A DNA stretch of 44,064 bases from a virus. The notes under the pieces are model-generated. The model made no database searches. It worked only from the letters and a program-made list of their open reading frames with translations, and was not told where the DNA came from. Below are positions 1 through 44,064 of this stretch, one piece after another. The DNA lies in the IMG/VR virus record IMGVR_UViG_3300046004_001078, positions 1 to 44,064 of that record; one strand, written 5' to 3'. Position 1 is the first letter of the stretch, and each line of letters opens with the position of its first letter. The position numbers were made by a program, and so were the translations under genes.

Positions 1-127
1 TACATGAGTGTATTCATGCAGCCGTACATATTTTAGATTGTGTTGATGTAAAGTTGGATGCAAATAATGACGAGCCATTAACCTATTTAGCTACTTATTT
101 ATTTAGTAAAATAATGGATAAGACTTT
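1..127. repeat. Terminal direct repeat (circular contig overlap)
   Basis: These 127 bases recur exactly as the last 127 bases of the window (43938-44064). The reading frame that enters at 43733 continues through this copy to a stop at 150-152, so the two ends join in the coding sense. A 127-base overlap fits an assembler joining a circle at its k-mer length. It shows a circular or circularly permuted genome and need not be a packaged terminal repeat. Confidence 0.93.
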
Positions 128-3668: not shown

Positions 3669-4861
3669 GGATAATTGCAATTCTATTATTAGTATTATTG
3701 ACCGTAACGGGCTATGCTCAAAAGCGTCAAAACATTGACCAACTAGTCGTTAAAGACAGTCTAACAATCAAGGCTGGCAACCCTGCGGCAAACAAGATAG
3801 CGGTAAGCGTAGACGGTAACGGGCGGTTTCGTTGGGTTTACTTTAGCGACTTTCAAGACAGCATAAACACGGGTGTTTTTGACACAAGCGATGTAAATGT
3901 ATTAATTGCTAACACAGTAAAAGTAAACCGTGACAGTTTTACCGACCCAGCGGCAACCATAGCAAGTATTGGAGATAGTGGCTTTGTTGTACAATGCGCT
4001 GCAAGTTGCGATGACATACGTTGGACTACTATTAATGGGGCGCAAACGGTTCTAAAAGACAGTACGGATAACGTAGGTATTGGTACAAGTAGCCCACAAA
4101 AAGAATTACACGTAGAGGGCGAAATATATTTTCATAAAAAAGTTAACGATGCCGATTACTATTTTTTCTTAGACGAAAACAATGAAAATATTTTACTTAG
4201 TGTAGTTGATACTATTGGCGACACTGAAAGTAATATTTCCATTTTACCTACAATGGCTCAAATGCTATTTACTGGCGATACTGCTAGTACCAGCATTGCA
4301 GTAGATGATAATGGTATAACTTTTAGACTACTAGGCGATAATCCTAAAAACCTTAAATTTACTATGCCAACTGTAGCCGATGCATACGTACTAACAAGCG
4401 ATGCAAGCGGTAACGCTACATGGCAAGACCACACGGCATACGGTGAAATGGGTTTTGGCGATAGCACCCGTACTTTAGCCCTTACGCAAAACGTGTGGAG
4501 CACAGTAACCAACACCGCAAAGGATTTACTAAGCGAGGGCGCAGTTAGCTTGCACAACGTAACATATCAAGCGGACAGCCTAACAATAGACAGCGCAGGT
4601 ACTTACTTAATAACCGCTAATATTTCAGTTGACGGCACTATCGGTTCAGTAATTGAATTTGGCGTGTTTAAAAACGGGGTTTTAATGTGTACTTGCACGG
4701 GCGAAATGGAACTACTAAACAACCGTGTTTTCCAGCTTAGCTATAATGACATAGCACCGTTAGCTAGTGGCGATGGGTTGCGATTGGTGCTAATGAATAC
4801 CGCTAACAACGATGATGTGGATTTGGTTAGTGGCAAAATAACGATTAACAAGATACGATAA
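3665..4861 (+). CDS. Tail fibre / receptor-binding protein with N-terminal signal-like segment
   Basis: A 398-residue protein. Residues 1-19 are a hydrophobic signal-like stretch (charged start, IIAILLLVLLTV, then GYAQ). Around residues 133-150 is the DNVGIGTSSPQKELHVEG motif typical of Bacteroidetes fibre and chaperone-tailed proteins. The last 130 residues form a beta sandwich that looks like a C1q/TNF-type trimer head, suitable for receptor binding. There is no lipobox cysteine. A secretion signal on a virion fibre is odd, because virion assembly is cytoplasmic; it may instead be a hydrophobic attachment segment. It overlaps both neighbours. Confidence 0.62.
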   Translation: MRIIAILLLVLLTVTGYAQKRQNIDQLVVKDSLTIKAGNPAANKIAVSVDGNGRFRWVYFSDFQDSINTGVFDTSDVNVLIANTVKVNRDSFTDPAATIASIGDSGFVVQCAASCDDIRWTTINGAQTVLKDSTDNVGIGTSSPQKELHVEGEIYFHKKVNDADYYFFLDENNENILLSVVDTIGDTESNISILPTMAQMLFTGDTASTSIAVDDNGITFRLLGDNPKNLKFTMPTVADAYVLTSDASGNATWQDHTAYGEMGFGDSTRTLALTQNVWSTVTNTAKDLLSEGAVSLHNVTYQADSLTIDSAGTYLITANISVDGTIGSVIEFGVFKNGVLMCTCTGEMELLNNRVFQLSYNDIAPLASGDGLRLVLMNTANNDDVDLVSGKITINKIR

Positions 4862-5583
4862 TGGCAGTATTTTCACTTAATGGTAACCAATCTTGCGAGA
4901 AGTGCTACGTATTTAGAATACGGGTATTAGGTTACACTAGTGGAAGTATAACAGTAGAAGTAGGCAATGGAGATTTTACAAGCATAGCAATCGTAGCAAC
5001 CATAACCGCAAACGGGAACTATGATATTGATATTAACTTTGACCCCTACGAATGCGCTACATTTAACGCCATAAGAATAACCCTATCAAGCCCTACAACT
5101 GCGGTTTACAGAGTTAAAGGTTTCTTTGTTGCCGATGCTTGTGCTGACAACTTTTGCTCTCGTTGTTTTGAGGTTACAGACAATGACGATTGCTTATTGG
5201 AATTGAGTTGGACTAATGGGCGCAACTTTGCCGACCTTGAATACAAACAACTTAACTACGTTCAAAAGGTATGGGTAAAAGGCGAAATAAACAACGCTAA
5301 CTACCCTATTGAAAACAGCGTCTTTAGGTTTGGCAATGGTGATACTATCCTAACCTACGCACGAAGGGTAAAAGCCATGCAATTAGCTTTAAAAGAATTG
5401 CCCGAATATATGCACAACGCTATTTCATTAGGGTTAATGCATGATGAATTTTACATTAACGGTGAACAATACCGTTTAGCTGCTGACGGCTACGAACCGA
5501 TATGGAGAAGGACTAGCAAACTTGCACCCGTAATAGTTGATGTGTTTAAGAAACAAGAAAACAGTAGAAACCAACTTTGCTAA
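4861..5583 (+). CDS. Hypothetical virion-region protein, cysteine-rich N-terminal half
   Basis: A 240-residue protein. The first 130 residues are beta-rich and hold many cysteines (C12, C15 near the start, and a CxxC in NFCSRCFEV). The C-terminal half is helical and charged. Family not recognised. It starts on the last base of the fibre gene's stop and ends directly before the first glycosyltransferase gene (TAA then ATG). Position suggests a fibre or baseplate component. Confidence 0.5.
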   Translation: MAVFSLNGNQSCEKCYVFRIRVLGYTSGSITVEVGNGDFTSIAIVATITANGNYDIDINFDPYECATFNAIRITLSSPTTAVYRVKGFFVADACADNFCSRCFEVTDNDDCLLELSWTNGRNFADLEYKQLNYVQKVWVKGEINNANYPIENSVFRFGNGDTILTYARRVKAMQLALKELPEYMHNAISLGLMHDEFYINGEQYRLAADGYEPIWRRTSKLAPVIVDVFKKQENSRNQLC

Positions 5584-6234
5584 ATGATTACACTAATACA
5601 CCCCAGCCGTAACCGCCCCGAAATGGCGTATAATCAATTGCAAAATTGGCTAAAGAAATCAAGCGGTAAGATAACAATACAGCACATTCTAAGTATTGAC
5701 CTAGATGAACCGCAAGCGGATAAGTACAAGGAACTGTTTACAGCTAGTCTAATAGTACAAGATAACACAAGTGAGGGTTATGTAGTAGGTGCGACTAACG
5801 TAGCAGCAAAACACGCTAAAGGCAATATTTTAATTTACCTAAGTGACGACTTTGACTGTCCGCAAGATTGGGATATTGAAGTAACCAATAGGTTAGCTGG
5901 CAGAAGGTTAACAGCCTTGCACGTTAACGATGACTATTCTAATTTCCGCAACCTATTTACTATCCCGATAATCACAAGGGACTTATACGATAAGTGGGGG
6001 TTCTTTTGGCATCCCGACTTTAAGTCAATGTTTTGCGATAACTTTATGTGGGAGCAAGTAAAGCGTGAGGGGTTTATTTTAAAAGCCAAAGACTTAGTTT
6101 TTAGGCATGACCACCACGATTTAAAACGTGCGGAAAAAGATGAAACATACATACGAAGCGGAGCGCAATACGCAGATGGTAGGAAGGTATTTAACACGCT
6201 ATGTAAAAGACTGAAATGGAACTGTCAATATTAA
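5584..6234 (+). CDS. Glycosyltransferase-like protein (GT-A fold) 1
   Basis: A 216-residue protein. The start ITLIHPSRNRPEMA and the acidic SDDFD (residues 87-91), after a hydrophobic strand NILIYL, are the nucleotide-sugar and metal-binding pattern of GT-A family 2 enzymes. HDHHD near residue 146 could supply further metal ligands. It starts right after the previous stop and overlaps the next glycosyltransferase by 19 bases. Acceptor and sugar cannot be read from sequence. Because it lies in the virion gene operon, the target may be a virion protein; this is inference. Confidence 0.7.
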   Translation: MITLIHPSRNRPEMAYNQLQNWLKKSSGKITIQHILSIDLDEPQADKYKELFTASLIVQDNTSEGYVVGATNVAAKHAKGNILIYLSDDFDCPQDWDIEVTNRLAGRRLTALHVNDDYSNFRNLFTIPIITRDLYDKWGFFWHPDFKSMFCDNFMWEQVKREGFILKAKDLVFRHDHHDLKRAEKDETYIRSGAQYADGRKVFNTLCKRLKWNCQY

Positions 6235-6797
6235 TAGCCACCGTAGATAGTAGGGTTAACGAGTTTAACGCACTAAAAGCAGAGTTTGAACGCCAAGCGG
6301 AAGGGAAACCAGTTGAAATAATTAGCCTTTGTGATAACAAAGAAATGCCAATAGGCACTAAACGCCAACGGTTATTGGAAATGGCTAAAGGGCGGTTTAT
6401 TGTGTTCTTTGACGATGACGACACCCCCGTAAGTAATTATGTTGACCTTATCTTACACGCTATTAGCTTTGATGTGGATTGCGTAAGCGTTAAAATTCAG
6501 ATGACTACAAATGGGGGTAACCCTCAACTTTGCATACACCGTTTAAGATGTCCAATGGCAGGCGGTAAACTTGCTAAAAGGTATCATTGTGATTGGATAA
6601 GACCGATAACACATTTTAACCCTGTTTTGCGTACCTTAGCTTTAAAGGCTGGATTTGGCAACGAGCGATACGGTGAAGATGTATTATATTGGAATAGGAT
6701 TAACAAGTTAGTAAAAAAAGACTATTGGTTGCCCGATATTCTATTCCACTACAATTACTCTGACAAAATACCCCACAACGAAAAGTACGGAATATGA
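6216..6797 (+). CDS. Glycosyltransferase family 2-like protein 2
   Basis: A 193-residue protein with the GT2 layout: an N-terminal strand LSILIATVDSR, a conserved GTKRQRLLEMAKG helix and the acidic DDDD at residues 66-69 after FIVFF, which is the DxD metal site. ERYGEDVLYWNRI near residue 150 resembles the ED acceptor-site motif of the family. It is a compact domain without membrane segments and overlaps both neighbours, so it is co-translated with the other transferases. Confidence 0.75.
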   Translation: MELSILIATVDSRVNEFNALKAEFERQAEGKPVEIISLCDNKEMPIGTKRQRLLEMAKGRFIVFFDDDDTPVSNYVDLILHAISFDVDCVSVKIQMTTNGGNPQLCIHRLRCPMAGGKLAKRYHCDWIRPITHFNPVLRTLALKAGFGNERYGEDVLYWNRINKLVKKDYWLPDILFHYNYSDKIPHNEKYGI

Positions 6798-7462
6798 CAA
6801 ACCCATTAGTAATTAACGTAGCATTGGGCAAGTGGTATCCACAAGGGCAAGAACGCTTAATAGAGAGCCTTAACGTACATGGCTGGCAATCCGTTAAAGG
6901 CTGGTTAGATAGACCCGTACAAGGCTTTAATACGCATAACCCGTACACTTGTAAAGCTAGTGCCTTTCAATATGCTTTAGACAACCACCACGATGTAGTG
7001 TTGTGGTGCGATGCTTCTATTTACGCTATCAAGCCTATCAACAAGCTAATGGAGTTGATAGATAAACAAGGTTATTTCTTTTGGGGTAGTGGTGAAAATT
7101 GCGCCCAAACGGTTAGCGATGCCTGTTTAAAGTTATTTGGTTTAACCCGTGACCAAGCTGAACTAATACCCGAATGCGCTAGTAGTGTTTTTGGCATTAA
7201 CCTAAATACTTATATTGGTAGAGAGTTTGCTAAACGATTTATTGAGTACACAAAGCAAGGTGCAGCGGACGGCAGTAGGCAACACGACAACCAATCGCAA
7301 GATGCCAGATTTAAGTACCACAGGCAAGACCAGAGCGTAGCAAGCTTAGTAATGAATGAACTAGGTATGAAGCTAGAGCAAATTCGTTACGTTGGCTATA
7401 AAGCCTATTTGAATGATTATGATAATACTGAAAATATTTGTTTACTAAACGAAGGAATGTAA
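6794..7462 (+). CDS. Glycosyltransferase-like protein 3
   Basis: A 222-residue protein. Strand DVVLWCDAS (D73 with S75 in DxD position) after a helix, and a C-terminal DNQSQDARFKYHRQDQSVASLV segment, look like a nucleotide-sugar transferase that lacks the classic second aspartate. The start overlaps the previous gene by ATGA. Less certain than its two upstream neighbours; it could be a transferase-fold protein with another donor. Confidence 0.55.
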   Translation: MTNPLVINVALGKWYPQGQERLIESLNVHGWQSVKGWLDRPVQGFNTHNPYTCKASAFQYALDNHHDVVLWCDASIYAIKPINKLMELIDKQGYFFWGSGENCAQTVSDACLKLFGLTRDQAELIPECASSVFGINLNTYIGREFAKRFIEYTKQGAADGSRQHDNQSQDARFKYHRQDQSVASLVMNELGMKLEQIRYVGYKAYLNDYDNTENICLLNEGM

Positions 7463-8061
7463 TGAGAGAAGACAATTTAAACAAGCTAGGTTTTGAAGGC
7501 GACCCACACGTATTGCCTGTCATTGAAAAACTAGCTAAGAAAAACAAAGTAGGGGTAATTATTGAAACGGGTACTTTCTTTGGAAACACGACTGCTAAGT
7601 TTGCGGAGTTGGGTTTGCCAGTAGTAACTATTGAAAGCCAAAGCAAACAATTTGCCGCAGCCTACAAAAACCTAAAGGCTAAAGGCTACGATGTTGATAA
7701 ATATCAAGACGGTACTATTTGGATGGTTAATGCTCATTCACAAGATGTGTTAGGGCAAGTAATTGACAACACAGGACAGGACAGCATACTATTCTATCTT
7801 GATGCCCATTGGGAAAGTCACTTACCTTTATTAAACGAACTTGACCACATAGCCAAAAGCGGTGTAAAGGCGGTTATCGTTATCCATGACTTCCAAGTAC
7901 CCAACAAAGATTTTGGTTTTGATGTGTACGGTGGTCAACCTTTGAACTACGAATTTATCAAGGACAAGCTTGATGCAATCTACCCTAAAGGCTACAATTA
8001 TTTTTACAACAAAGTAGCGGAAGGGCATAAACGAGGGTTAATATTTATCGAGCCAAAATAA
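7462..8061 (+). CDS. SAM-dependent methyltransferase-like protein
   Basis: A 199-residue protein. VIIETGTFFGNTT (residues 32-44) matches the SAM-binding motif I of class I methyltransferases, VVTIES (55-60) the acidic end of strand 2, and FYLDAHW with VIVIHDF the later motifs of the small sugar-modifying branch. I chose the ATG at 7462 (TAATG overlap with the previous stop) rather than a TTG at 7438. As last gene of the transferase run it may methylate the sugar they add; that is inference. Confidence 0.65.
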   Translation: MREDNLNKLGFEGDPHVLPVIEKLAKKNKVGVIIETGTFFGNTTAKFAELGLPVVTIESQSKQFAAAYKNLKAKGYDVDKYQDGTIWMVNAHSQDVLGQVIDNTGQDSILFYLDAHWESHLPLLNELDHIAKSGVKAVIVIHDFQVPNKDFGFDVYGGQPLNYEFIKDKLDAIYPKGYNYFYNKVAEGHKRGLIFIEPK

Positions 8062-8062
8062 A

Positions 8063-8112
8063 TTTAGATTAGTCTAAAAAATTTGCTTGGTAATATTAAA
8101 ACATTATCTTTG
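8063..8112 (+). promoter_or_regulatory. Structural-gene promoter with palindrome
   Basis: Palindrome TTTAGA-TTAG-TCTAAA (8063-8078), -33 TTTG (8082-8085), the shared TTGGTAATATTAAAA, and -7 TATCTTTG (8105-8112), 19 bases after TTTG. It is the twin of the promoter at 2325-2375. By the spacing in leaderless genes here, transcription should start near 8117, exactly at the first hairpin of the leader RNA. Confidence 0.8.
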
Positions 8113-8115
8113 TAT

Positions 8116-8190
8116 GGTCGAAGGACTTTAATCTACGTGCCAATTTTACCCCACAGGCATAAATAAGTTGGGGTGTTAACTTTTAACACC
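8116..8190 (+). ncRNA. Structured leader RNA, copy 1 (shared with the major capsid gene)
   Basis: Helix P0: GGTC (8116-8119), loop GAAG, GACT (8124-8127). Helix P1: GTGCC (8137-8141) with GGCAT (8156-8160). The P1 loop holds ACCCCA (8148-8153), complementary to TGGGGT (8169-8174), a possible pseudoknot. Helix P3: GGTGTTAA (8172-8179), loop CTT, TTAACACC (8183-8190), ending 5 bases before the ATG. The pseudoknot and P3 share GG, so they may exclude each other. The second copy at 13564-13639 keeps all helices with different bases. No known RNA family is recognised. Confidence 0.75.
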
Positions 8191-8195
8191 TAATT

Positions 8196-8735
8196 ATGGC
8201 TTTTGATTATTGTAATGCCCCCCTTACCGACCACGAACTAATTGCTTGCGGTAACTGGAAAAAAGGCTCAATTAACGCAGTTGCTATCATTGAAGATACA
8301 ACCCTACTTACTGATTACGAAAGTATTTCCGATTGGAACGCTGCTATTGCTGCTGGCGATGTAAAAATTATCAAGCAAGTAAAAGGCGAACTACCAGAAC
8401 CTAGTGTTATTGAAGGTTCTAATCCTGTTGGTGGTGGTCGTGAGAATATCACAGACGGATATAACTACACTCTTGAAATTCAAGACTATAACGTATCAGC
8501 GGATAACGATACCTTTTACGAAAACCTTAACCCACGTATTGCGGCTATTGCCTACTTCATGCCTAAGACTGGCGAAATTGGTGTAGTATTGCAAGAGGTT
8601 ACGTTTAACGCCCGTCCTGTAGTTCCGATGTCAAGCACCGAAAAGCAACACTACTTGCTTACTTCCAATTGGGACGCGCCAGCTAACGAGTTTCCTTTGC
8701 GTTTTACCGCCCCTGCTGGAATCTTTACCGTGTGA
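8196..8735 (+). CDS. Probable major tail tube protein
   Basis: A 179-residue, mostly beta protein without catalytic motifs. It has its own palindrome promoter and the same structured leader as the major capsid gene, so it is probably made in bulk like the capsid. Length and composition suit a siphovirus tail tube subunit. It stands apart from the tape measure and chaperone genes, with glycosyltransferases on both sides. An alternative is a capsid decoration protein. It overlaps the next gene by GTGA. Confidence 0.5.
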   Translation: MAFDYCNAPLTDHELIACGNWKKGSINAVAIIEDTTLLTDYESISDWNAAIAAGDVKIIKQVKGELPEPSVIEGSNPVGGGRENITDGYNYTLEIQDYNVSADNDTFYENLNPRIAAIAYFMPKTGEIGVVLQEVTFNARPVVPMSSTEKQHYLLTSNWDAPANEFPLRFTAPAGIFTV

Positions 8736-9595
8736 GTAAGGGTGTAATATTGTTAGCACTTGGAAAACCTGCCTACGGGCAGTTTGCCTATCACATGGCT
8801 TTATCTATCCGTGCCTACAATACTACAATTCCTATACACTTAGTTTATGAGCCTAGCATTAAGCTAACGCATGAATTAGATGTATTTACCCACAAAACGG
8901 TAATAGACCCCGTACACGTTTATCAAGACGGTAAATTTACCCCTGCATTGGCTAAACTTAATCTCTATAAATACTTGTTATTTGAGGAGAATATTTACGT
9001 AGATGTGGACGGTATTTGCATAGCTGATATTGAGCGTTGTTTTAATCAAACAAAAGACTATGCAGCGGAAAGTTTAGGATATGAACCGTTAAGCAATAAA
9101 GAATACGGCTGGCGTATGCACTGGGCAACTGGCGAAACAATAATGAAGCATTACGGGTTAAGCCCCGACACAATGATACCGTTTATAAACAGTTCTTTTC
9201 AATTTATACGTAAGGGCAAGTTTGCTGAAAAGTTATACGCACAAGCGTTAATGAACTTCAATAACTGCATACCTTTAAAGGAACTAAAAAACGATTGGGG
9301 TAAAAGCCAACCCGATGAACTGTATATGAATATAGCGTGTGGGCAGTTAAATTACGACCCAACTATTGAGCCACAAGTCTACTTTAGAACTCGGTCAATG
9401 GCTGGCGGTAATGAAACCGTAGAAACGCTTGCAAAGAAATATACTTTTGTAGGCTTGTACGGCACTAAGGTAACTAACCACAGAGTTGTTAAAATGCTTT
9501 ATAATAGTGTGGTGGGAAACATTTTTAAGTCAATGGGTCAACCGCACGTACACAAGATTGAACAATTATTGAACTTTAAATTTATGGGAAGATGA
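8732..9595 (+). CDS. Glycosyltransferase family 8-like protein 4
   Basis: A 287-residue protein that starts with GTG inside the previous stop (GTGA). The strand ENIYVDVDG (D91, D93) is a clear DxD site, preceded by LNLYKYLLFE, the usual GT8-type lead-in. FINSSFQFI and DELYMNIA downstream fit the acceptor side of the same fold. It lies between the probable tail tube and portal genes and so belongs to the virion operon; a virion glycoprotein substrate is the simplest guess. Confidence 0.7.
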   Translation: MSKGVILLALGKPAYGQFAYHMALSIRAYNTTIPIHLVYEPSIKLTHELDVFTHKTVIDPVHVYQDGKFTPALAKLNLYKYLLFEENIYVDVDGICIADIERCFNQTKDYAAESLGYEPLSNKEYGWRMHWATGETIMKHYGLSPDTMIPFINSSFQFIRKGKFAEKLYAQALMNFNNCIPLKELKNDWGKSQPDELYMNIACGQLNYDPTIEPQVYFRTRSMAGGNETVETLAKKYTFVGLYGTKVTNHRVVKMLYNSVVGNIFKSMGQPHVHKIEQLLNFKFMGR

Positions 9596-9651: not shown

Positions 9652-11487
9652 ATGATTGAATTAACGGATTTAGATAGCATAAGGAAAACAGCGGTAAAGG
9701 CTTACACTTCTAAAGAAGGTGAGCCAAACCCCATTTACTATCAAGCCGTTGATATGCAATACAGGGTAGCGGTGCATTCAGAGGATTTATTCCCCGATAG
9801 GATGTTTAAACAAAAAGCACCTAACGAAACGGATGCGGAATTTGAATACCGCAAAAAGACTTATCGTAACAATACGAAACAAGATTGGAATAGGGCAGTA
9901 GGATTATTAAACAGGCTTTGGAATGAACAAAATTGGAGCTTGAAGTTTAATGATGACGAAGCCCTATACTCCGATAATTCAATGGCTAGTTATGTCTATA
10001 AAGACTATCCACGTGGCGGCAATCTTATAGAGTGGTTTAAGACAACCGTAACTAAAGCTAAAGCTAATCTATTTAACGGTGTGATAGCGGTTAAGCCCGA
10101 ACTTGACTATATAGTAGGTGAAGATGGTGAGTACTTGGTAGATGAAAGTGGAGCGTATGTAATTGACGACACGGTACTACCCGAACCCGTAGCATACGTT
10201 TACACCCCCGAGCAAGTGTTGGACTTTCAAGATGAAAAGTTTGCACTAATCTTACTAACCGAAAAAAGCCCCGTAAAGCTTACCCGTAATTCCAATGTTG
10301 AAAAAATGGAAGGGCTAGTAATGGACTTTTACGATGACACGTATATTTATCGGATTAAACAGTACGGGGTTAAATCGGATTACACTTTTGAAACTACTGT
10401 TTACTTTGAGCACAACTTAGGCTATTTGCCAGTTGATAAGATTAAAGGTATTCCATTAGGGCGTGACGATAACAACGGCTACCAACTTTACAAGTCATTG
10501 TTTTATGATGCGGTGGATTTATTGGACACCGCTCTATACGATTTTAGTACGTTACAATGCAGTAAGGTAGCACACGCATTCTTAGAGCGTTGGGAATATG
10601 TTGATGAATGTAGCGCAGGGTGTAGCGATTATGAACGTGACGGAATCTTTAGAATACCTAGTGGCGATGGTTACGTAGTGTGTTCAACTTGCAACGGCAA
10701 AGGCACAAGTTCTAAAAAGGGAGTATTTAACACCTTCCAAATAAGGTCTAAAGGTTTAACGGTTTCGGGTGACGATGCTATAAGCCCACCGCCAGCAGGG
10801 TACATAAACAAAGATGCTACTATCTTGGAGTTCTTGAAAAAAGAAATACAAGACACGATTGATAAGGCTTTTGTAATGGCTAATATCCCTATATCGGGGC
10901 AAGCCAATGGTAACAGCGCAACGGAAGCCAAAATTGACCGTGATGAATTGATAGTAGCGTTAATGATGGAAGCTACACAACTATTTGGGTTACTTAACAA
11001 CACGCTTTACTACATTGGTGGTATGCGTTACGGTAGTTCTTATACAGGGCACGTTATAACAAAACCTACGGACTTATCTATACTTACTGCTTACGACCTT
11101 ACACAAGAGATAAATACAGCCGTTAATCAGCCTAGTATTGTTAAGTCGGCTTTGCAAAAAGAATACCTTAATGCGAGGTTTAGTGGCGACACAGCCGAAA
11201 TGCAAGAACTTAACAACGTGGTTGAATATAGCGATGCGCTACTGTATATGACAGATGAAAGCATACGGGCTAACTTATTGGCTGGCACTATTGCCAAATG
11301 GCAAGTAATACTTCATAACTCTATTGTGTCTTTTATCAAGCAAAAGACAACCGACAATCCTAGATACTTGGAAAGTGATTTGGCAACGATTAAAACAGAC
11401 CTTGAAACGATGGCAAAAGCAATGGAAGCAAGCATAAGCCCAACAACGGGGGCTAATACGATATTGGACATAGCCGCAGGGTTATAA
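9652..11487 (+). CDS. Portal protein with Cys4 zinc-site insertion
   Basis: A 611-residue protein placed directly before a MuF-like head gene, scaffold and major capsid, the usual portal position, and of portal size. The C-terminal third is helical, as in portal clip and crown regions. Residues 320-347 hold CxxxC and CxxCxGKG (C320, C324, C344, C347), the latter like DnaJ-type zinc loops. It forms the dodecameric DNA channel at the capsid vertex that docks the terminase. Assignment rests on context and length; sequence similarity to distant portals is low. Confidence 0.7.
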   Translation: MIELTDLDSIRKTAVKAYTSKEGEPNPIYYQAVDMQYRVAVHSEDLFPDRMFKQKAPNETDAEFEYRKKTYRNNTKQDWNRAVGLLNRLWNEQNWSLKFNDDEALYSDNSMASYVYKDYPRGGNLIEWFKTTVTKAKANLFNGVIAVKPELDYIVGEDGEYLVDESGAYVIDDTVLPEPVAYVYTPEQVLDFQDEKFALILLTEKSPVKLTRNSNVEKMEGLVMDFYDDTYIYRIKQYGVKSDYTFETTVYFEHNLGYLPVDKIKGIPLGRDDNNGYQLYKSLFYDAVDLLDTALYDFSTLQCSKVAHAFLERWEYVDECSAGCSDYERDGIFRIPSGDGYVVCSTCNGKGTSSKKGVFNTFQIRSKGLTVSGDDAISPPPAGYINKDATILEFLKKEIQDTIDKAFVMANIPISGQANGNSATEAKIDRDELIVALMMEATQLFGLLNNTLYYIGGMRYGSSYTGHVITKPTDLSILTAYDLTQEINTAVNQPSIVKSALQKEYLNARFSGDTAEMQELNNVVEYSDALLYMTDESIRANLLAGTIAKWQVILHNSIVSFIKQKTTDNPRYLESDLATIKTDLETMAKAMEASISPTTGANTILDIAAGL

Positions 11488-25834: not shown

Positions 25835-25852
25835 CCTAAAACTATTTTTACC

Positions 25853-25888
25853 TTTAGTGTAATAATTCAAATAATAGTAGTACCTTAG
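25853..25888 (+). promoter_or_regulatory. Duplicated early promoter, copy 1
   Basis: ACTATTTTTA, then GTAATAATTCAAATAATA (25859-25876), then TACCTTAG (25881-25888). The 18-base core recurs exactly at 29687-29704, also followed by a -7 box. The gap from TTTA (25853) to the -7 box is 24 bases, longer than usual. It drives the gene at 25917. Confidence 0.6.
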
Positions 25889-25916
25889 CGTTATTATTAA
25901 CCACAATAACCACAAC

Positions 25917-26924: not shown

Positions 26925-27209
26925 ATGAAAACAGTTAACCAAGCGTTTCAAGAATACAACGAAGCGCACCCCGAAGTTTATAAGACCTTTGAGCAAATGG
27001 CACTAGCGTTAATCAACAAAGGTGTAAAGCATTACGGTTCTAAAGCTATTATCGAAGCTATCCGTTACCACACTTCAGTAAGTGAAGGCAAGGAATTCAA
27101 GATTAACAACAACATTACGCCATTGTTTGCTAGGGTTTTTGAAAATAATAATCCACAGCATAAAGGCTTTTTTGAAAAACGTGCAAGTAAATTAACCAAC
27201 CATGAATGA
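26925..27209 (+). CDS. Hypothetical phage protein
   Basis: A 94-residue protein. FEQMALALINKGVKHYGSKAIIEAIRYHT, then FKINNNITPLFARVF is a pattern common in phage early regions, often beside DNA-modifying genes; its function is not known to me. I use the ATG at 26925, 7 bases after the previous stop, not the TTG at 26898. It overlaps the helicase-methyltransferase gene by 8 bases. Confidence 0.65.
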   Translation: MKTVNQAFQEYNEAHPEVYKTFEQMALALINKGVKHYGSKAIIEAIRYHTSVSEGKEFKINNNITPLFARVFENNNPQHKGFFEKRASKLTNHE

Positions 27210-29352
27210 TTACCTTCAATTTTTAGAAACCAAAGCCAAAACACTAACCATATCGGGTTTTGATGTTGAGGAATTAAACCCGTTGCTATTTCCGTTCCAA
27301 TCGTTCATAGTTCGCAGGGCTTTAAAGGCTGGCAAATATGCGGTGTTTGCGGATTGTGGACTTGGCAAAACGTTCATGCAATTAGAATGGGCGTATAGAG
27401 TAGCTGAATACACGGGCGGCAGGGTATTGATATTAGCACCGTTAGTTGTGGTACGTCAAACAATCGAACAGGCTGCACAATTTGGCATTGATATATCCAA
27501 TATTGATGTAAACAATTATGAGCAACTTGATAATATTGATACGTCAATTTACAAGGGTATTGTATTGGATGAGTCGAGTATCTTAAAAAACTTTGAAGGC
27601 GCAACGAAACAACTAATACTTGATAAGTTTGCCAACACACCATATAAATTAGCTTGCACCGCAACACCCAGCCCTAACGACCCGATGGAAATAGGCAACC
27701 ATGCCGAGTTTTTAGACGTTATGGGGCGCAATGAAATGTTAGCGATGTACTTTGTGCATGATGGTGGAGAAACGGCTAAATGGCGCATTAAAGGGCATGC
27801 AGTCGAAACCTTTTACAAGTGGGTAGGTACTTGGGCGGTAATGCTATCTAAACCTTGCGATATTGGTTTTGATATGGAAGGGTACGATTTACCCCCGTTA
27901 AACTTTGTGGAGCACACCATAACCACCCCAAAGCGTGACAACGGGCAACTATTTAACGATGTTGCGATAAGTGCCACTAACTTTAATGGCGAACTACGTA
28001 TTACTTTGTTGCCCCGTATGGAAATGGCAGCGGAACTCGTTAATAATTCGACAGAAAATTTTATTGTTTGGGTAAAACAAAACGAGGAAGGCGAGCATAT
28101 CCGTAAAATGATACCGCAATCGGTTGAGGTTAAAGGTTCAGACAACCCCGAATATAAAGCAAGCAAGTTGTTAGGGTTTGCAAAGAATGAATTTCGCACC
28201 CTAATTACTAAAGCTAAAATAGCGCAGTTTGGTTTGAACTATCAAAATTGCCATAATCAAATATTCGCTTCGCTTGACTTTAGCTTTGAAAGTTTATACC
28301 AAGCGATAAGGCGTTCATATCGGTTTGGGCAAGAAAACCAAGTTAACATTTACATTATCACAACCGATACAATGACAAACGTATTGGAAGTGATTAAACG
28401 CAAAGAACTTGACTTTAAAAAAATGCAATACGAACTATCCAAAACCATAAACGAAAACCTAAACATGGAAACCAGTATCACACTAATTGATGGAGAGCAA
28501 GAAGTAAAAACCGATTTATACCATATTAAGCGTGGCGACTGCGTACAAAAGATTGCAGAAGTTGAAAGCGAAAGTATTGGATTTTCGGTATTTAGCCCAC
28601 CGTTTGCAGACCTTTACACTTACTCAAACCATATTGAAGATATGGGTAACAGTACCGACTATAACCAATTCTTAATTCAGTTCGGTTATTTGGTACGGGA
28701 ATTACATAGGGTTATAATGAGTGGCAGGAATGTGGCGGTACATTGTATGGACTTGCCAATACAAAAAGGCAAAGAAGGATTTATTGGATTGCGTGACTTT
28801 AGCGGATTGATTATTAAAGCGTTTACCGATGCAGGGTTCGTTTATCATAGCAGGGTAACAATATGGAAAGACCCAGTAGTTGAAATGCAGCGTACAAAGG
28901 CTTTAGGCTTGTTACATAAGCAAGTAAAAAAAGATAGCACTATGAGCCGTGTTGGAATACCCGATTACGTATTGATTTTTCGCAAAGATGGTGAACGTGA
29001 AAACCCTGTAAAATGTACTATTGATGTTGACACGTGGCAAAAATACGCTTCGCCTGTTTGGATGGATATTAAATACGGGAATACTTTACAGTACATGAGT
29101 GCCCGTGACGAGAAAGACGAGAAGCACATTTGCCCGTTGCAGCTTGATACTATTGAACGATTGATACACCTATACACTAACCCTAACGATACGGTATTAA
29201 CTCCGTTTATGGGTATTGGCAGCGAGGTTTACCAAGCGGTAAAGATGGGGCGCAAAGGAATAGGATTTGAACTGAAACAATCGTATTTTGATGTAGCCGT
29301 TAAGAACTGTGATGCAGCAAAACAATCATTATCGCAACTAAGCCTACTTTGA
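27202..29352 (+). CDS. SF2 helicase fused to DNA methyltransferase
   Basis: A 716-residue fusion. Residues 1-430 are a SNF2-like SF2 helicase: Walker A ADCGLGKT (50-57), motif II LDES (122-125, not DEAH), motif III TATPSPND (153-160), motif VI QAIRRSYRFGQ (367-377). Residues 435-716 are a class beta methyltransferase: SPPF (465-468) as catalytic motif IV and FMGIGSE (669-675) as SAM-binding motif I, near the end. SPPF is nearer to the SPPY of N4-cytosine enzymes than to DPPY. It may scan and methylate phage DNA. No partner restriction enzyme is seen, so self-protection is the likely use. Confidence 0.85.
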   Translation: MNDYLQFLETKAKTLTISGFDVEELNPLLFPFQSFIVRRALKAGKYAVFADCGLGKTFMQLEWAYRVAEYTGGRVLILAPLVVVRQTIEQAAQFGIDISNIDVNNYEQLDNIDTSIYKGIVLDESSILKNFEGATKQLILDKFANTPYKLACTATPSPNDPMEIGNHAEFLDVMGRNEMLAMYFVHDGGETAKWRIKGHAVETFYKWVGTWAVMLSKPCDIGFDMEGYDLPPLNFVEHTITTPKRDNGQLFNDVAISATNFNGELRITLLPRMEMAAELVNNSTENFIVWVKQNEEGEHIRKMIPQSVEVKGSDNPEYKASKLLGFAKNEFRTLITKAKIAQFGLNYQNCHNQIFASLDFSFESLYQAIRRSYRFGQENQVNIYIITTDTMTNVLEVIKRKELDFKKMQYELSKTINENLNMETSITLIDGEQEVKTDLYHIKRGDCVQKIAEVESESIGFSVFSPPFADLYTYSNHIEDMGNSTDYNQFLIQFGYLVRELHRVIMSGRNVAVHCMDLPIQKGKEGFIGLRDFSGLIIKAFTDAGFVYHSRVTIWKDPVVEMQRTKALGLLHKQVKKDSTMSRVGIPDYVLIFRKDGERENPVKCTIDVDTWQKYASPVWMDIKYGNTLQYMSARDEKDEKHICPLQLDTIERLIHLYTNPNDTVLTPFMGIGSEVYQAVKMGRKGIGFELKQSYFDVAVKNCDAAKQSLSQLSLL

Positions 29353-29663: not shown

Positions 29664-29681
29664 TTTCAACTATTTTTATAC

Positions 29682-29716
29682 TTTGCGTAATAATTCAAAT
29701 AATAAGGCTATCTTTG
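29682..29716 (+). promoter_or_regulatory. Duplicated early promoter, copy 2
   Basis: TTTG (29682-29685), the repeated GTAATAATTCAAATAATA (29687-29704) and TATCTTTG (29709-29716). Matches the element at 25853-25888, including ACTATTTTTA on the 5' side. The next ATG is at 29746. Confidence 0.7.
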
Positions 29717-29745
29717 TTTTACACTTAACCACTAAAGCACAGGAA

Positions 29746-34698: not shown

Positions 34699-34719
34699 CC
34701 GTGGGCGTGTTGCTCACGG
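34699..34719 (+). repeat. Repeated 21-base hairpin, copy 1
   Basis: CCGTGGGC, loop GTGTT, GCTCACGG: an 8-bp stem with one G-U pair. The identical 21 bases recur at 35050-35070, so the pair flanks the gene at 34736-35047. This copy is 16 bases before that gene's ATG and is not followed by a T-run. Confidence 0.88.
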
Positions 34720-34735
34720 ATTTAAAATCAATACA

Positions 34736-35047
34736 ATGGCTAACTATTTTCAGACAGACGATAGGGACGATTATTTTGCTCAATTTGAAAGCAAACCTCG
34801 CATTAAGAAACCCAAACCAAAGGGCTGGGCAAAGTCAAGACGAGAGGAAAAATTTGCCAAGCGTGTTGAGTTAGCCGATAAGATTAAAAAAGTATTGCCA
34901 TTGTACAACGGCATTGATAGGGAAAAGCTAGAGCAGATTGCGACAGAGTTAACGACCCAAAAAAACGTAGCAATTCCTGTGGGAATTACTTGGAAGTGCG
35001 CTGAAACAAAAAGTATTTTGGAGCGCATACATCAATACACATTTTGA
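34736..35047 (+). CDS. Small basic hypothetical protein between hairpin repeats
   Basis: A 103-residue basic protein (RIKKPKPKGWAKSRREEKFAKR, then a helical region and AIPVGITWKCAETKSILERIHQY). Basic N-terminal half suggests nucleic-acid binding. It is enclosed by identical hairpins and large structured RNAs. Family not recognised. An ORF at 34650-34874 in another frame is probably spurious. Confidence 0.55.
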   Translation: MANYFQTDDRDDYFAQFESKPRIKKPKPKGWAKSRREEKFAKRVELADKIKKVLPLYNGIDREKLEQIATELTTQKNVAIPVGITWKCAETKSILERIHQYTF

Positions 35048-35049
35048 AA

Positions 35050-35070
35050 CCGTGGGCGTGTTGCTCACGG
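35050..35070 (+). repeat. Repeated 21-base hairpin, copy 2
   Basis: Identical to 34699-34719, and located two bases after the stop of the enclosed gene. TTTTTT follows 5 bases later (about 35076-35081), so this copy might also end transcription, though the T-run is not adjacent to the stem. Confidence 0.88.
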
Positions 35071-35082
35071 GTAAATTTTTTA

Positions 35083-35137
35083 AACAGTTGCCCACTACTC
35101 ACAATTTGTGCAAAGGCTGTTAGGGTAGTGGGCAGCT
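35083..35137 (+). ncRNA. Structured leader element (long stem or pseudoknot)
   Basis: AGTTGCCCACTAC (35086-35098) pairs with GTAGTGGGCAGCT (35125-35137) over 13 bp with one G-U. AACAG (35083-35087) can alternatively pair with CTGTT (35117-35121), which gives an interleaved pseudoknot order with the core stem. A small CACA/TGTG hairpin lies inside. It ends 13 bases before the ATG at 35151, so it probably regulates that gene. Confidence 0.6.
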
Positions 35138-43732: not shown

Positions 43733-44064
43733 ATGCCAGCAATAGAATTTTTGATACCAGTAGATGTATACGCCTGCAAGGTTAGGGTAGTTGTTACTGA
43801 CGACAGAGAAAAGACATACAAAAAGCACAATTTAACACCTAGAAATGGGTTAGCCGTTTGCTATTTTAAGCAAAGCCCAAATGAAGAATTATGTTTAATT
43901 TTGTTTGATAATGATAAAATTGAGCCTAACCATATTGTACATGAGTGTATTCATGCAGCCGTACATATTTTAGATTGTGTTGATGTAAAGTTGGATGCAA
44001 ATAATGACGAGCCATTAACCTATTTAGCTACTTATTTATTTAGTAAAATAATGGATAAGACTTT
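43733..44064 (+). CDS. HExxH metallopeptidase-like protein, N-terminal part (continues at 1-152)
   Basis: This is the first 110 residues of a 118-residue protein that crosses the contig junction. HIVHECIHAAVHIL (H70, E71, H74) is an HExxH zinc motif, and NDEPLTYLATYL further on may give the third ligand, as in small phage proteins with HE--H and E-AYL--YL. The catalytic role is unproven. It lies between the tape measure and tail-tip genes, so it may process or be part of the tail tip. Start ATG at 43733, 4 bases after the previous stop. Confidence 0.75.
   Translation, partial: MPAIEFLIPVDVYACKVRVVVTDDREKTYKKHNLTPRNGLAVCYFKQSPNEELCLILFDNDKIEPNHIVHECIHAAVHILDCVDVKLDANNDEPLTYLATYLFSKIMDKT
43938..44064. 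repeat. Terminal direct repeat (second copy)
   Basis: Exact copy of bases 1-127; see that entry. For any count of genome length or genes this copy should be dropped. Confidence 0.93.

What the first reader, a model, noticed from the sequence alone, without database searches (positions are those of the whole stretch)
5584..9595. Four glycosyltransferase-like genes and a methyltransferase inside the virion operon
Three transferase genes overlap each other between fibre genes and the probable tail tube gene, followed by a SAM methyltransferase-like gene; a fourth, GT8-like, follows the tail tube gene. No dCTP hydroxymethylase or thymidylate synthase homologue is seen, which argues against DNA base glycosylation. 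Glycosylated and methyl-capped virion proteins, or changes to host surface sugars to block rival phages, are the likely outcomes.
Basis: partly seen in the sequence, partly recalled or inferred. Interest (0 to 1): 0.7.

Follow-up and report, generated by a model that had tools for sequence, protein, structure and literature searches.

The report
Virion-sugar gene cassette beside portal
An uncultivated phage, probably of a Bacteroidota bacterium, carries sugar-attaching enzymes and a methylating enzyme among the genes for its own particle, most likely to coat the particle with a capped sugar; one of these genes is fixed next to the portal gene throughout a group of related phages while its version is repeatedly swapped.

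Summary
The genes are real. GT1 (5584-6234), GT2 (6216-6797), GT3 (6794-7462) and a methyltransferase, MT (7462-8061), overlap in series; GT4 (8732-9595) follows a conserved 179-aa gene, C8196, and precedes the portal. GT1 and GT2 match phage glycosyltransferase families; GT4 has a glycogenin (GT8) fold. GT3's fold is only weakly glycosyltransferase-like. The genome looks complete and has no thymidylate synthase.

GT4 is no loose moron: 63 of 63 testable portal-seeded contigs carry C8196-GT4 directly upstream of the portal, 61 with a methyltransferase too. These enzymes' alleles appear swapped between genomes whose virion genes are at least 90% identical. GT1-3/MT is a second cassette, with relatives in unrelated phages, mostly near virion genes.

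GT2 is homologous to Che8 gp108, a glycosyltransferase-methyltransferase fusion beside gp110, which published work names as essential for capsid glycosylation. Methyl-capped virion glycosylation is therefore the best explanation; host-surface modification is less likely, DNA glycosylation unlikely. The tail-tube identity of C8196 is not supported. Acceptor and sugar are unknown. New variant of a known kind.

The parts
4861..5583 (+). C4861: conserved virion-region protein, left neighbour of the cassette
   Evidence: homologues in 77 of 91 loci (five of them one contig); the cassette lies between it and C8196
5584..6234 (+). GT1: GT-A type glycosyltransferase (family-2-like)
   Evidence: phrog_14945 1.2e-14; invariant SDDF motif in 6 of 6; tblastn to Arthrobacter, Streptomyces and Pelagibacter phage records
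6216..6797 (+). GT2: family-2-like glycosyltransferase, homologue of LittleE gp15 and of the N-terminal half of Che8 gp108
   Evidence: phrog_14775 2.4e-31; DDDD and ED columns invariant in 6 of 6; 34% to LittleE gp15, 31% to Che8 gp108
6794..7462 (+). GT3: possible GT-A-like transferase, family unknown
   Evidence: 5-member alignment; model pLDDT 68.4; first Foldseek rows COLGALT1 and the PBCV-1 capsid glycosyltransferase, E 0.002-0.08 only
7462..8061 (+). MT: class I SAM methyltransferase, distant relative of the clade's Methyltransf_24 enzyme
   Evidence: a relative in L088 lies beside a GT2-family gene and near a portal gene
8196..8735 (+). C8196: conserved 179-aa protein of unknown role; possible acceptor; tail-tube identity not supported
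   Evidence: 63 of 63 testable portal-seeded loci; no useful family or solved-structure match
8732..9595 (+). GT4: GT8/glycogenin-fold glycosyltransferase, core gene of the clade
   Evidence: invariant DVD and QPDELYMN motifs; AF2 pLDDT 90.4; glycogenin Z 17.5, rmsd 3.1, 209 aligned
9652..11487 (+). portal protein
   Evidence: phrog_7376 portal 1.6e-20 for its homologue in L023; hhalign 99.2% to the Polaribacter phage P12002L portal
1..127 (.). direct terminal repeat, left copy; genome probably complete
43938..44064 (.). direct terminal repeat, right copy

Best explanation
These are two linked virion-glycosylation loci. The core locus (C8196-GT4, with a methyltransferase in most relatives) and the accessory cassette (GT1-GT2-GT3-MT) are expressed with the head and tail proteins. 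Using the host's nucleotide sugars, a first transferase puts a sugar on a virion protein (C8196, a capsid or a tail/fibre protein is the inferred acceptor), the others extend the glycan, and the MT caps it by O-methylation. The glycotype of the particle changes by exchange of GT and MT alleles. Shown: the genes, the GT8 fold of GT4, the families of GT1 and GT2, the fixed position beside the portal, replacement of GT/MT alleles between near-identical flanks, homology of GT2 to an enzyme of Che8's glycosylation island. Inferred: that the acceptor is a virion protein, the order of enzymes, the sugars, that the MT acts on the glycan, late expression, and the advantage gained (surface charge, adhesion, or shielding).
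For: GT4 has the glycogenin (GT8) fold with invariant DVD and QPDELYMN motifs. C8196-GT4 is directly upstream of the portal in 63 of 63 portal-seeded loci with enough upstream sequence (63 of 80 fetched), with a methyltransferase in 61; the other two have a second GT there. The methyltransferases of relatives are clear Methyltransf_24/O-methyltransferase or FkbM members. GT2 is homologous to LittleE gp15, which follows the major capsid gene among further GTs, and to Che8 gp108, a GT fused to a Methyltransf_24/TylF domain two genes from gp110, named essential for capsid glycosylation in PMC12363180 (passages). GT2-GT3-FkbM lies just upstream of a head maturation protease gene in L006, with the portal gene further on; a GT1 homologue is one gene away from a tail sheath gene in L004; an MT relative, a GT2-family gene and then a portal gene are neighbours in L088. 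Among 162 locus pairs with portal and C8196 both at least 90% identical, GT4 falls below 70% in 34 and the methyltransferase in 32, against 0 for two control virion-region genes. No enzyme has a membrane-like stretch.
Against: No glycan or acceptor is known. GT3, GT4 and the window MT showed no homology to the 14 Che8, LittleE, Mimi and EGole proteins tested; the link to a proven system runs through GT2 only, and Che8 gp110, the GT named essential, matches none of GT1-4. Relatives of GT1 in Mimi and EGole lie outside an evident head module, beside nucleotidyltransferase, tRNA or endolysin genes. Gene neighbourhood does not prove the substrate. GT3's fold evidence is weak.
Confidence: 0.72

Rival explanations
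1. The enzymes alter host surface polysaccharide during infection to block rival phages or re-adsorption.
For: Phage GTs with that role exist in temperate phages (PMC12619734 passages). GT2 weakly resembles polysaccharide and lipid-linked GTs. Allele replacement would also fit a surface arms race.
Against: No GtrA homologue (control rang in 7 of 14), no membrane-like stretches in the enzymes, fixed place beside the portal, homology of GT2 to an enzyme of a virion-glycosylation island.
Confidence: 0.14
2. The enzymes glycosylate modified phage DNA bases.
For: Phage GTs with this role are known (PMC12619734 passages). The genome has a helicase-DNA methyltransferase fusion.
Against: No thymidylate synthase or hydroxymethylase homologue of either family in a probably complete genome; the GTs lie with virion genes, not replication genes. 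The T4 AGT family search is uninformative because no control rang.
Confidence: 0.04
3. GT4 is a virion glycosyltransferase, but the GT1-GT2-GT3-MT insert is a travelling moron with another function, such as surface or small-molecule glycosylation.
For: The insert occurs in only 3 records of the clade seen here (window, 3300009474_000008, the L008 contig) and wholly or partly in the unrelated L003, L004 and L006.
Against: Its neighbours are mostly virion genes where sequence allows, and GT2 is the one with the Che8 link.
Confidence: 0.1

Closest known systems
Mycobacteriophage Che8 gp108-gp109-gp110 virion-glycosylation island (Freeman 2023, not held; known here from citing papers)
   Same: A run of overlapping GT genes including a GT2 homologue and a methyltransferase domain; gp108 is a GT-MTase fusion.
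   Different: Che8's island is near the right end of its genome, not beside the portal; gp109 and gp110 match none of GT1-4 by the profiles used; the host is a mycobacterium.
Mycobacteriophage LittleE (Omegavirus) gp15-gp21
   Same: A GT2 homologue and three more annotated GTs between the major capsid and head-tail connector genes.
   Different: None of the LittleE GTs tested matches GT4; no methyltransferase is annotated there; a kinase is.
Glycogenin / GT8 family
   Same: GT4 fold and DXD-type motif.
   Different: 13-15% identity; self-glucosylation is not implied.
PBCV-1 capsid glycosyltransferase (2p72) and COLGALT1
   Same: Among the first Foldseek rows for GT3.
   Different: E 0.002-0.08 and a model of pLDDT 68.4: a lead only.

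Membership tests
GT8 / glycogenin-fold glycosyltransferases (GT4) | GT-A fold of the GT8 kind | tested here: met
   Z 17.5, rmsd 3.1, 209 aligned to 3rmv; 309 Foldseek matches at E <= 0.001
GT8 / glycogenin-fold glycosyltransferases (GT4) | DXD metal-binding motif conserved | tested here: met
   DVD at 91-93 invariant in 28 of 28 aligned sequences
GT8 / glycogenin-fold glycosyltransferases (GT4) | sugar transfer from a nucleotide sugar | not testable with these tools
   needs an enzyme assay
Family-2-type glycosyltransferases (GT1, GT2) | Pfam Glycos_transf_2 over its cut-off | tested here: not met
   14.0 and 20.1 bits against 23.3; whole-genome scan also below the cut-off
Family-2-type glycosyltransferases (GT1, GT2) | match to phage glycosyltransferase families and conserved Asp motifs | tested here: met
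   phrog_14945, phrog_14775; SDDF, DDDD and ED columns invariant in 6 of 6
GT-A fold transferase (GT3) | GT-A fold | tested here: inconclusive
   pLDDT 68.4; best Foldseek E 0.0019; best Z 8.1, tied with cytidylyltransferases
SAM methyltransferase (MT) | class I methyltransferase profile | tested here: inconclusive
   0.087 by Pfam alone; profile-profile 89% with the clade's clear methyltransferases
Phage virion-glycosylation island (Che8 type) | homologous GT | tested here: met
   GT2 to Che8 gp108: 31% over 186 aa, 135 bits by profile
Phage virion-glycosylation island (Che8 type) | homologue of gp110, the GT named essential for capsid glycosylation | tested here: not met
   no significant match of GT1-4 to gp110
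Phage virion-glycosylation island (Che8 type) | glycan covalently on a virion protein | not testable with these tools
   needs mass spectrometry
DNA-base glycosylation system | supply of hydroxymethylated bases (thymidylate synthase homologue) | tested here: not met
   controls rang in 9 and 6 of 14
Serotype-conversion (Gtr-type) system | GtrA-like flippase with a membrane GT (definition recalled) | tested here: not met

The most novel reading that the evidence does not exclude
A clade of uncultivated phages carries an obligatory glycotype locus: a GT8-fold transferase and a methyltransferase fixed between two virion-region genes, whose alleles are exchanged between near-identical phages much like a serotype locus, so that particles of one lineage wear different methyl-capped glycans; the 179-aa neighbour C8196 is the dedicated acceptor.
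Probability: 0.3. Interest if true: 0.75.

Novelty: new variant of a known kind. Interest (0 to 1): 0.55.

Why it matters
In the papers read here, virion glycosylation by phage-encoded enzymes is documented for a few mycobacteriophages (Che8, Corndog, Myrna), where it was studied for antibody evasion. A fixed but allele-swapping GT-methyltransferase locus in metagenomic phages of another host group would suggest that particle glycans serve another, perhaps ecological, purpose, and it gives a defined locus with which to ask what that is.

Tried and rejected
Tail-tube identity of C8196: Pfam, PHROG, NCBIfam, PDB-profile and tblastn searches gave nothing useful; hhalign against 23 proteins of Polaribacter phage P12002L and Tenacibaculum phage JQ gave no match for it, nor did the L006 neighbour gene. 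No structure was predicted for it because both jobs went to GT4 and GT3.

Coevolution of GT4 with C8196 as a sign of the acceptor: GT4 distances correlate with C8196 (0.75) no better than with the portal (0.78) in 39 loci, so no support. Loci lacking any of the eight genes, and L008, were left out of that count.

Host: genome-contig scans with GT4 and portal alignments found no relative. Bacteroidota is inferred from weak relatives in Polaribacter, Tenacibaculum and Leeuwenhoekiella phages; Rhodobacteraceae and Pseudanabaena phages also appear. A Bacteroidota-type promoter pattern (consensus recalled) at 8082-8112 was not above chance for the window (5 against 2.1 expected; 12 of 100 shuffles reach 5). 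A hairpin just before C8196 is shared with contig 3300009474_000008 but was not seen, by eye, in the 15 other loci listed.

The T4 AGT search is uninformative. The single-sequence portal scan found only the closest relative, so an alignment was used. Script 117 prints means under the word 'median'; true medians are. Sample types of the contigs were not checked.
Full report
What is there. The window is a virus record of 44,064 bases with a 127-bp direct terminal repeat, so it is probably a complete genome. GT1 5584-6234, GT2 6216-6797, GT3 6794-7462 and MT 7462-8061 are chained by overlaps of 19, 4 and 1 nt; after a 134-nt gap come C8196 (8196-8735), GT4 (8732-9595, GTG start, 4-nt overlap) and the portal (9652-11487). 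All are 90-96% identical in the same order in contig 3300009474_000008. G+C of GT1-3 and MT (0.39-0.41) is close to the genome's 0.394.

What the proteins are. GT1 and GT2 match PHROG glycosyltransferase families and keep Asp-rich motifs across relatives, although both are below the Pfam cut-off. GT4 was modelled from 28 aligned sequences (pLDDT 90.4); glycogenin is its closest solved fold (Foldseek 1.2e-9; Z 17.5, rmsd 3.1, 209 aligned), and DVD, NSS and QPDELYMN are invariant. GT3 is uncertain: model pLDDT 68.4 from 5 sequences; the first Foldseek rows include COLGALT1 and the PBCV-1 capsid glycosyltransferase, E 0.0019-0.08, and the best Z is 8.1, tied with cytidylyltransferases. The MT is weak alone but aligns with the clade's clear Methyltransf_24 enzyme by profile (probability 89%).

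The core locus. A GT4-seeded scan kept 80 of 102 loci; nearly all show C8196-GT4-(x)-portal, with C4861 before C8196 where the contig reaches, and of 88 genes found between GT4 and portal 74 form one methyltransferase family, 12 a second GT family, 2 another (Pfam of examples). As that scan was seeded by GT4, I repeated it from the portal: the best 80 of 191 loci were kept. Of these, 63 have at least 2,900 bases upstream of the portal; C8196 and GT4 are present in 63 of 63, the methyltransferase in 61, the second GT in 11 including the two without methyltransferase. The 17 shorter loci were not scored, and many contigs are shared with the first scan. The clade has no close relative in 50,697 phage records; the nearest portal is that of Polaribacter phage P12002L, whose genome has TerL, not a GT, before the portal.

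Allele swapping. In 57 of 80 portal-seeded loci with six scorable genes there are 162 pairs (of 1,596) with portal and C8196 both at least 90% identical. GT4 is below 70% identity in 34 of them and the methyltransferase in 32, while the two control genes downstream of the portal are below 70% in 0. Pairs are not independent; grouped by flanks, the three large groups (13, 12 and 12 loci) hold 1, 2 and 3 GT4 classes and 3, 1 and 3 methyltransferase classes but 1 class of each control; the seven groups of 2-3 loci hold one class of each. That is at least 3 GT4 and 4 methyltransferase replacements. Very fast divergence instead of exchange cannot be wholly excluded.

The accessory cassette. GT1-GT2-GT3 occurs as a unit in the window, 3300009474_000008, L008 (33-46% identity, followed by an FkbM methyltransferase) and in the unrelated contig L003 (63-74%); GT2-GT3-FkbM precedes a head maturation protease gene, with a portal gene further on, in L006; GT1 and GT2 homologues occur in L004, where one GT1 homologue is one gene away from a tail sheath gene. 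In L088 a relative of the window MT is followed by a GT2-family gene and, after a small gene, a portal gene. L089, another MT relative, has a UDP-sugar dehydrogenase and an FkbM-like gene (below cut-off) beside it.

Link to a characterised system. GT2 hits LittleE gp15, which follows the major capsid gene and is one of four annotated GTs there, and Che8 gp108 (31% over 186 aa; 135 bits by profile among 14 proteins). Che8 gp108 carries PF00535 and Methyltransf_24/TylF domains and sits in gp108-110. PMC12363180 (passages read) states that Che8 gp110 and Corndog gp38 are essential for capsid glycosylation; PMC12619734 (passages) reports glycans at the C-termini of capsid and tail tube subunits in Mycobacterium phages, citing Freeman 2023, which I could not read. 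gp110 itself matches none of GT1-4. GT1 relatives in Mimi and EGole lie beside nucleotidyltransferase genes outside an evident head module, which speaks against a strict virion link for that family.

Alternatives. DNA glycosylation lacks its base-modifying partner (PF00303 and PF02511 absent). Host-surface modification lacks a GtrA match and membrane-like stretches. No sugar-nucleotide pathway genes of families PF00483 or PF01370 are present, so host sugars would probably be used.

Verdict. Observation confirmed with corrections; interpretation partly supported. The system probably works like the mycobacteriophage virion-glycosylation islands and shares a homologous GT with one, but the essential Che8 enzyme has no homologue among GT1-4 and no glycan has been shown, so it is filed as a new variant of a known kind, with the fixed and swapping GT4-methyltransferase locus as the notable part.

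Noticed in passing
window 27202-29352: A 716-aa protein joins a DEAD/Helicase_C region to an N6/N4 DNA methyltransferase domain.
   Followed up: no
window 25840-25904 and 29668-29732: Two 65-nt direct repeats, 75% identical, outside the virion region; possibly promoter copies.
   Followed up: no
window 34699-34746 and 35050-35097: Two 48-nt repeats that share a GC-rich hairpin-like start.
   Followed up: no
window 8171-8191: A perfect short hairpin just before the C8196 start codon, similar in contig 3300009474_000008 but not seen in 15 other loci.
   Followed up: partly
window 9652-11487: The portal carries a Cys/Gly-rich insertion; three Cys and three Gly columns of it are invariant in 11 of 11 aligned portals.
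   Followed up: no
L089 (contig 3300031857_000010) 6887-9416: A 216-kb viral contig has an MT relative beside a UDP-sugar dehydrogenase and an FkbM-like gene in a long run of genes.
   Followed up: partly
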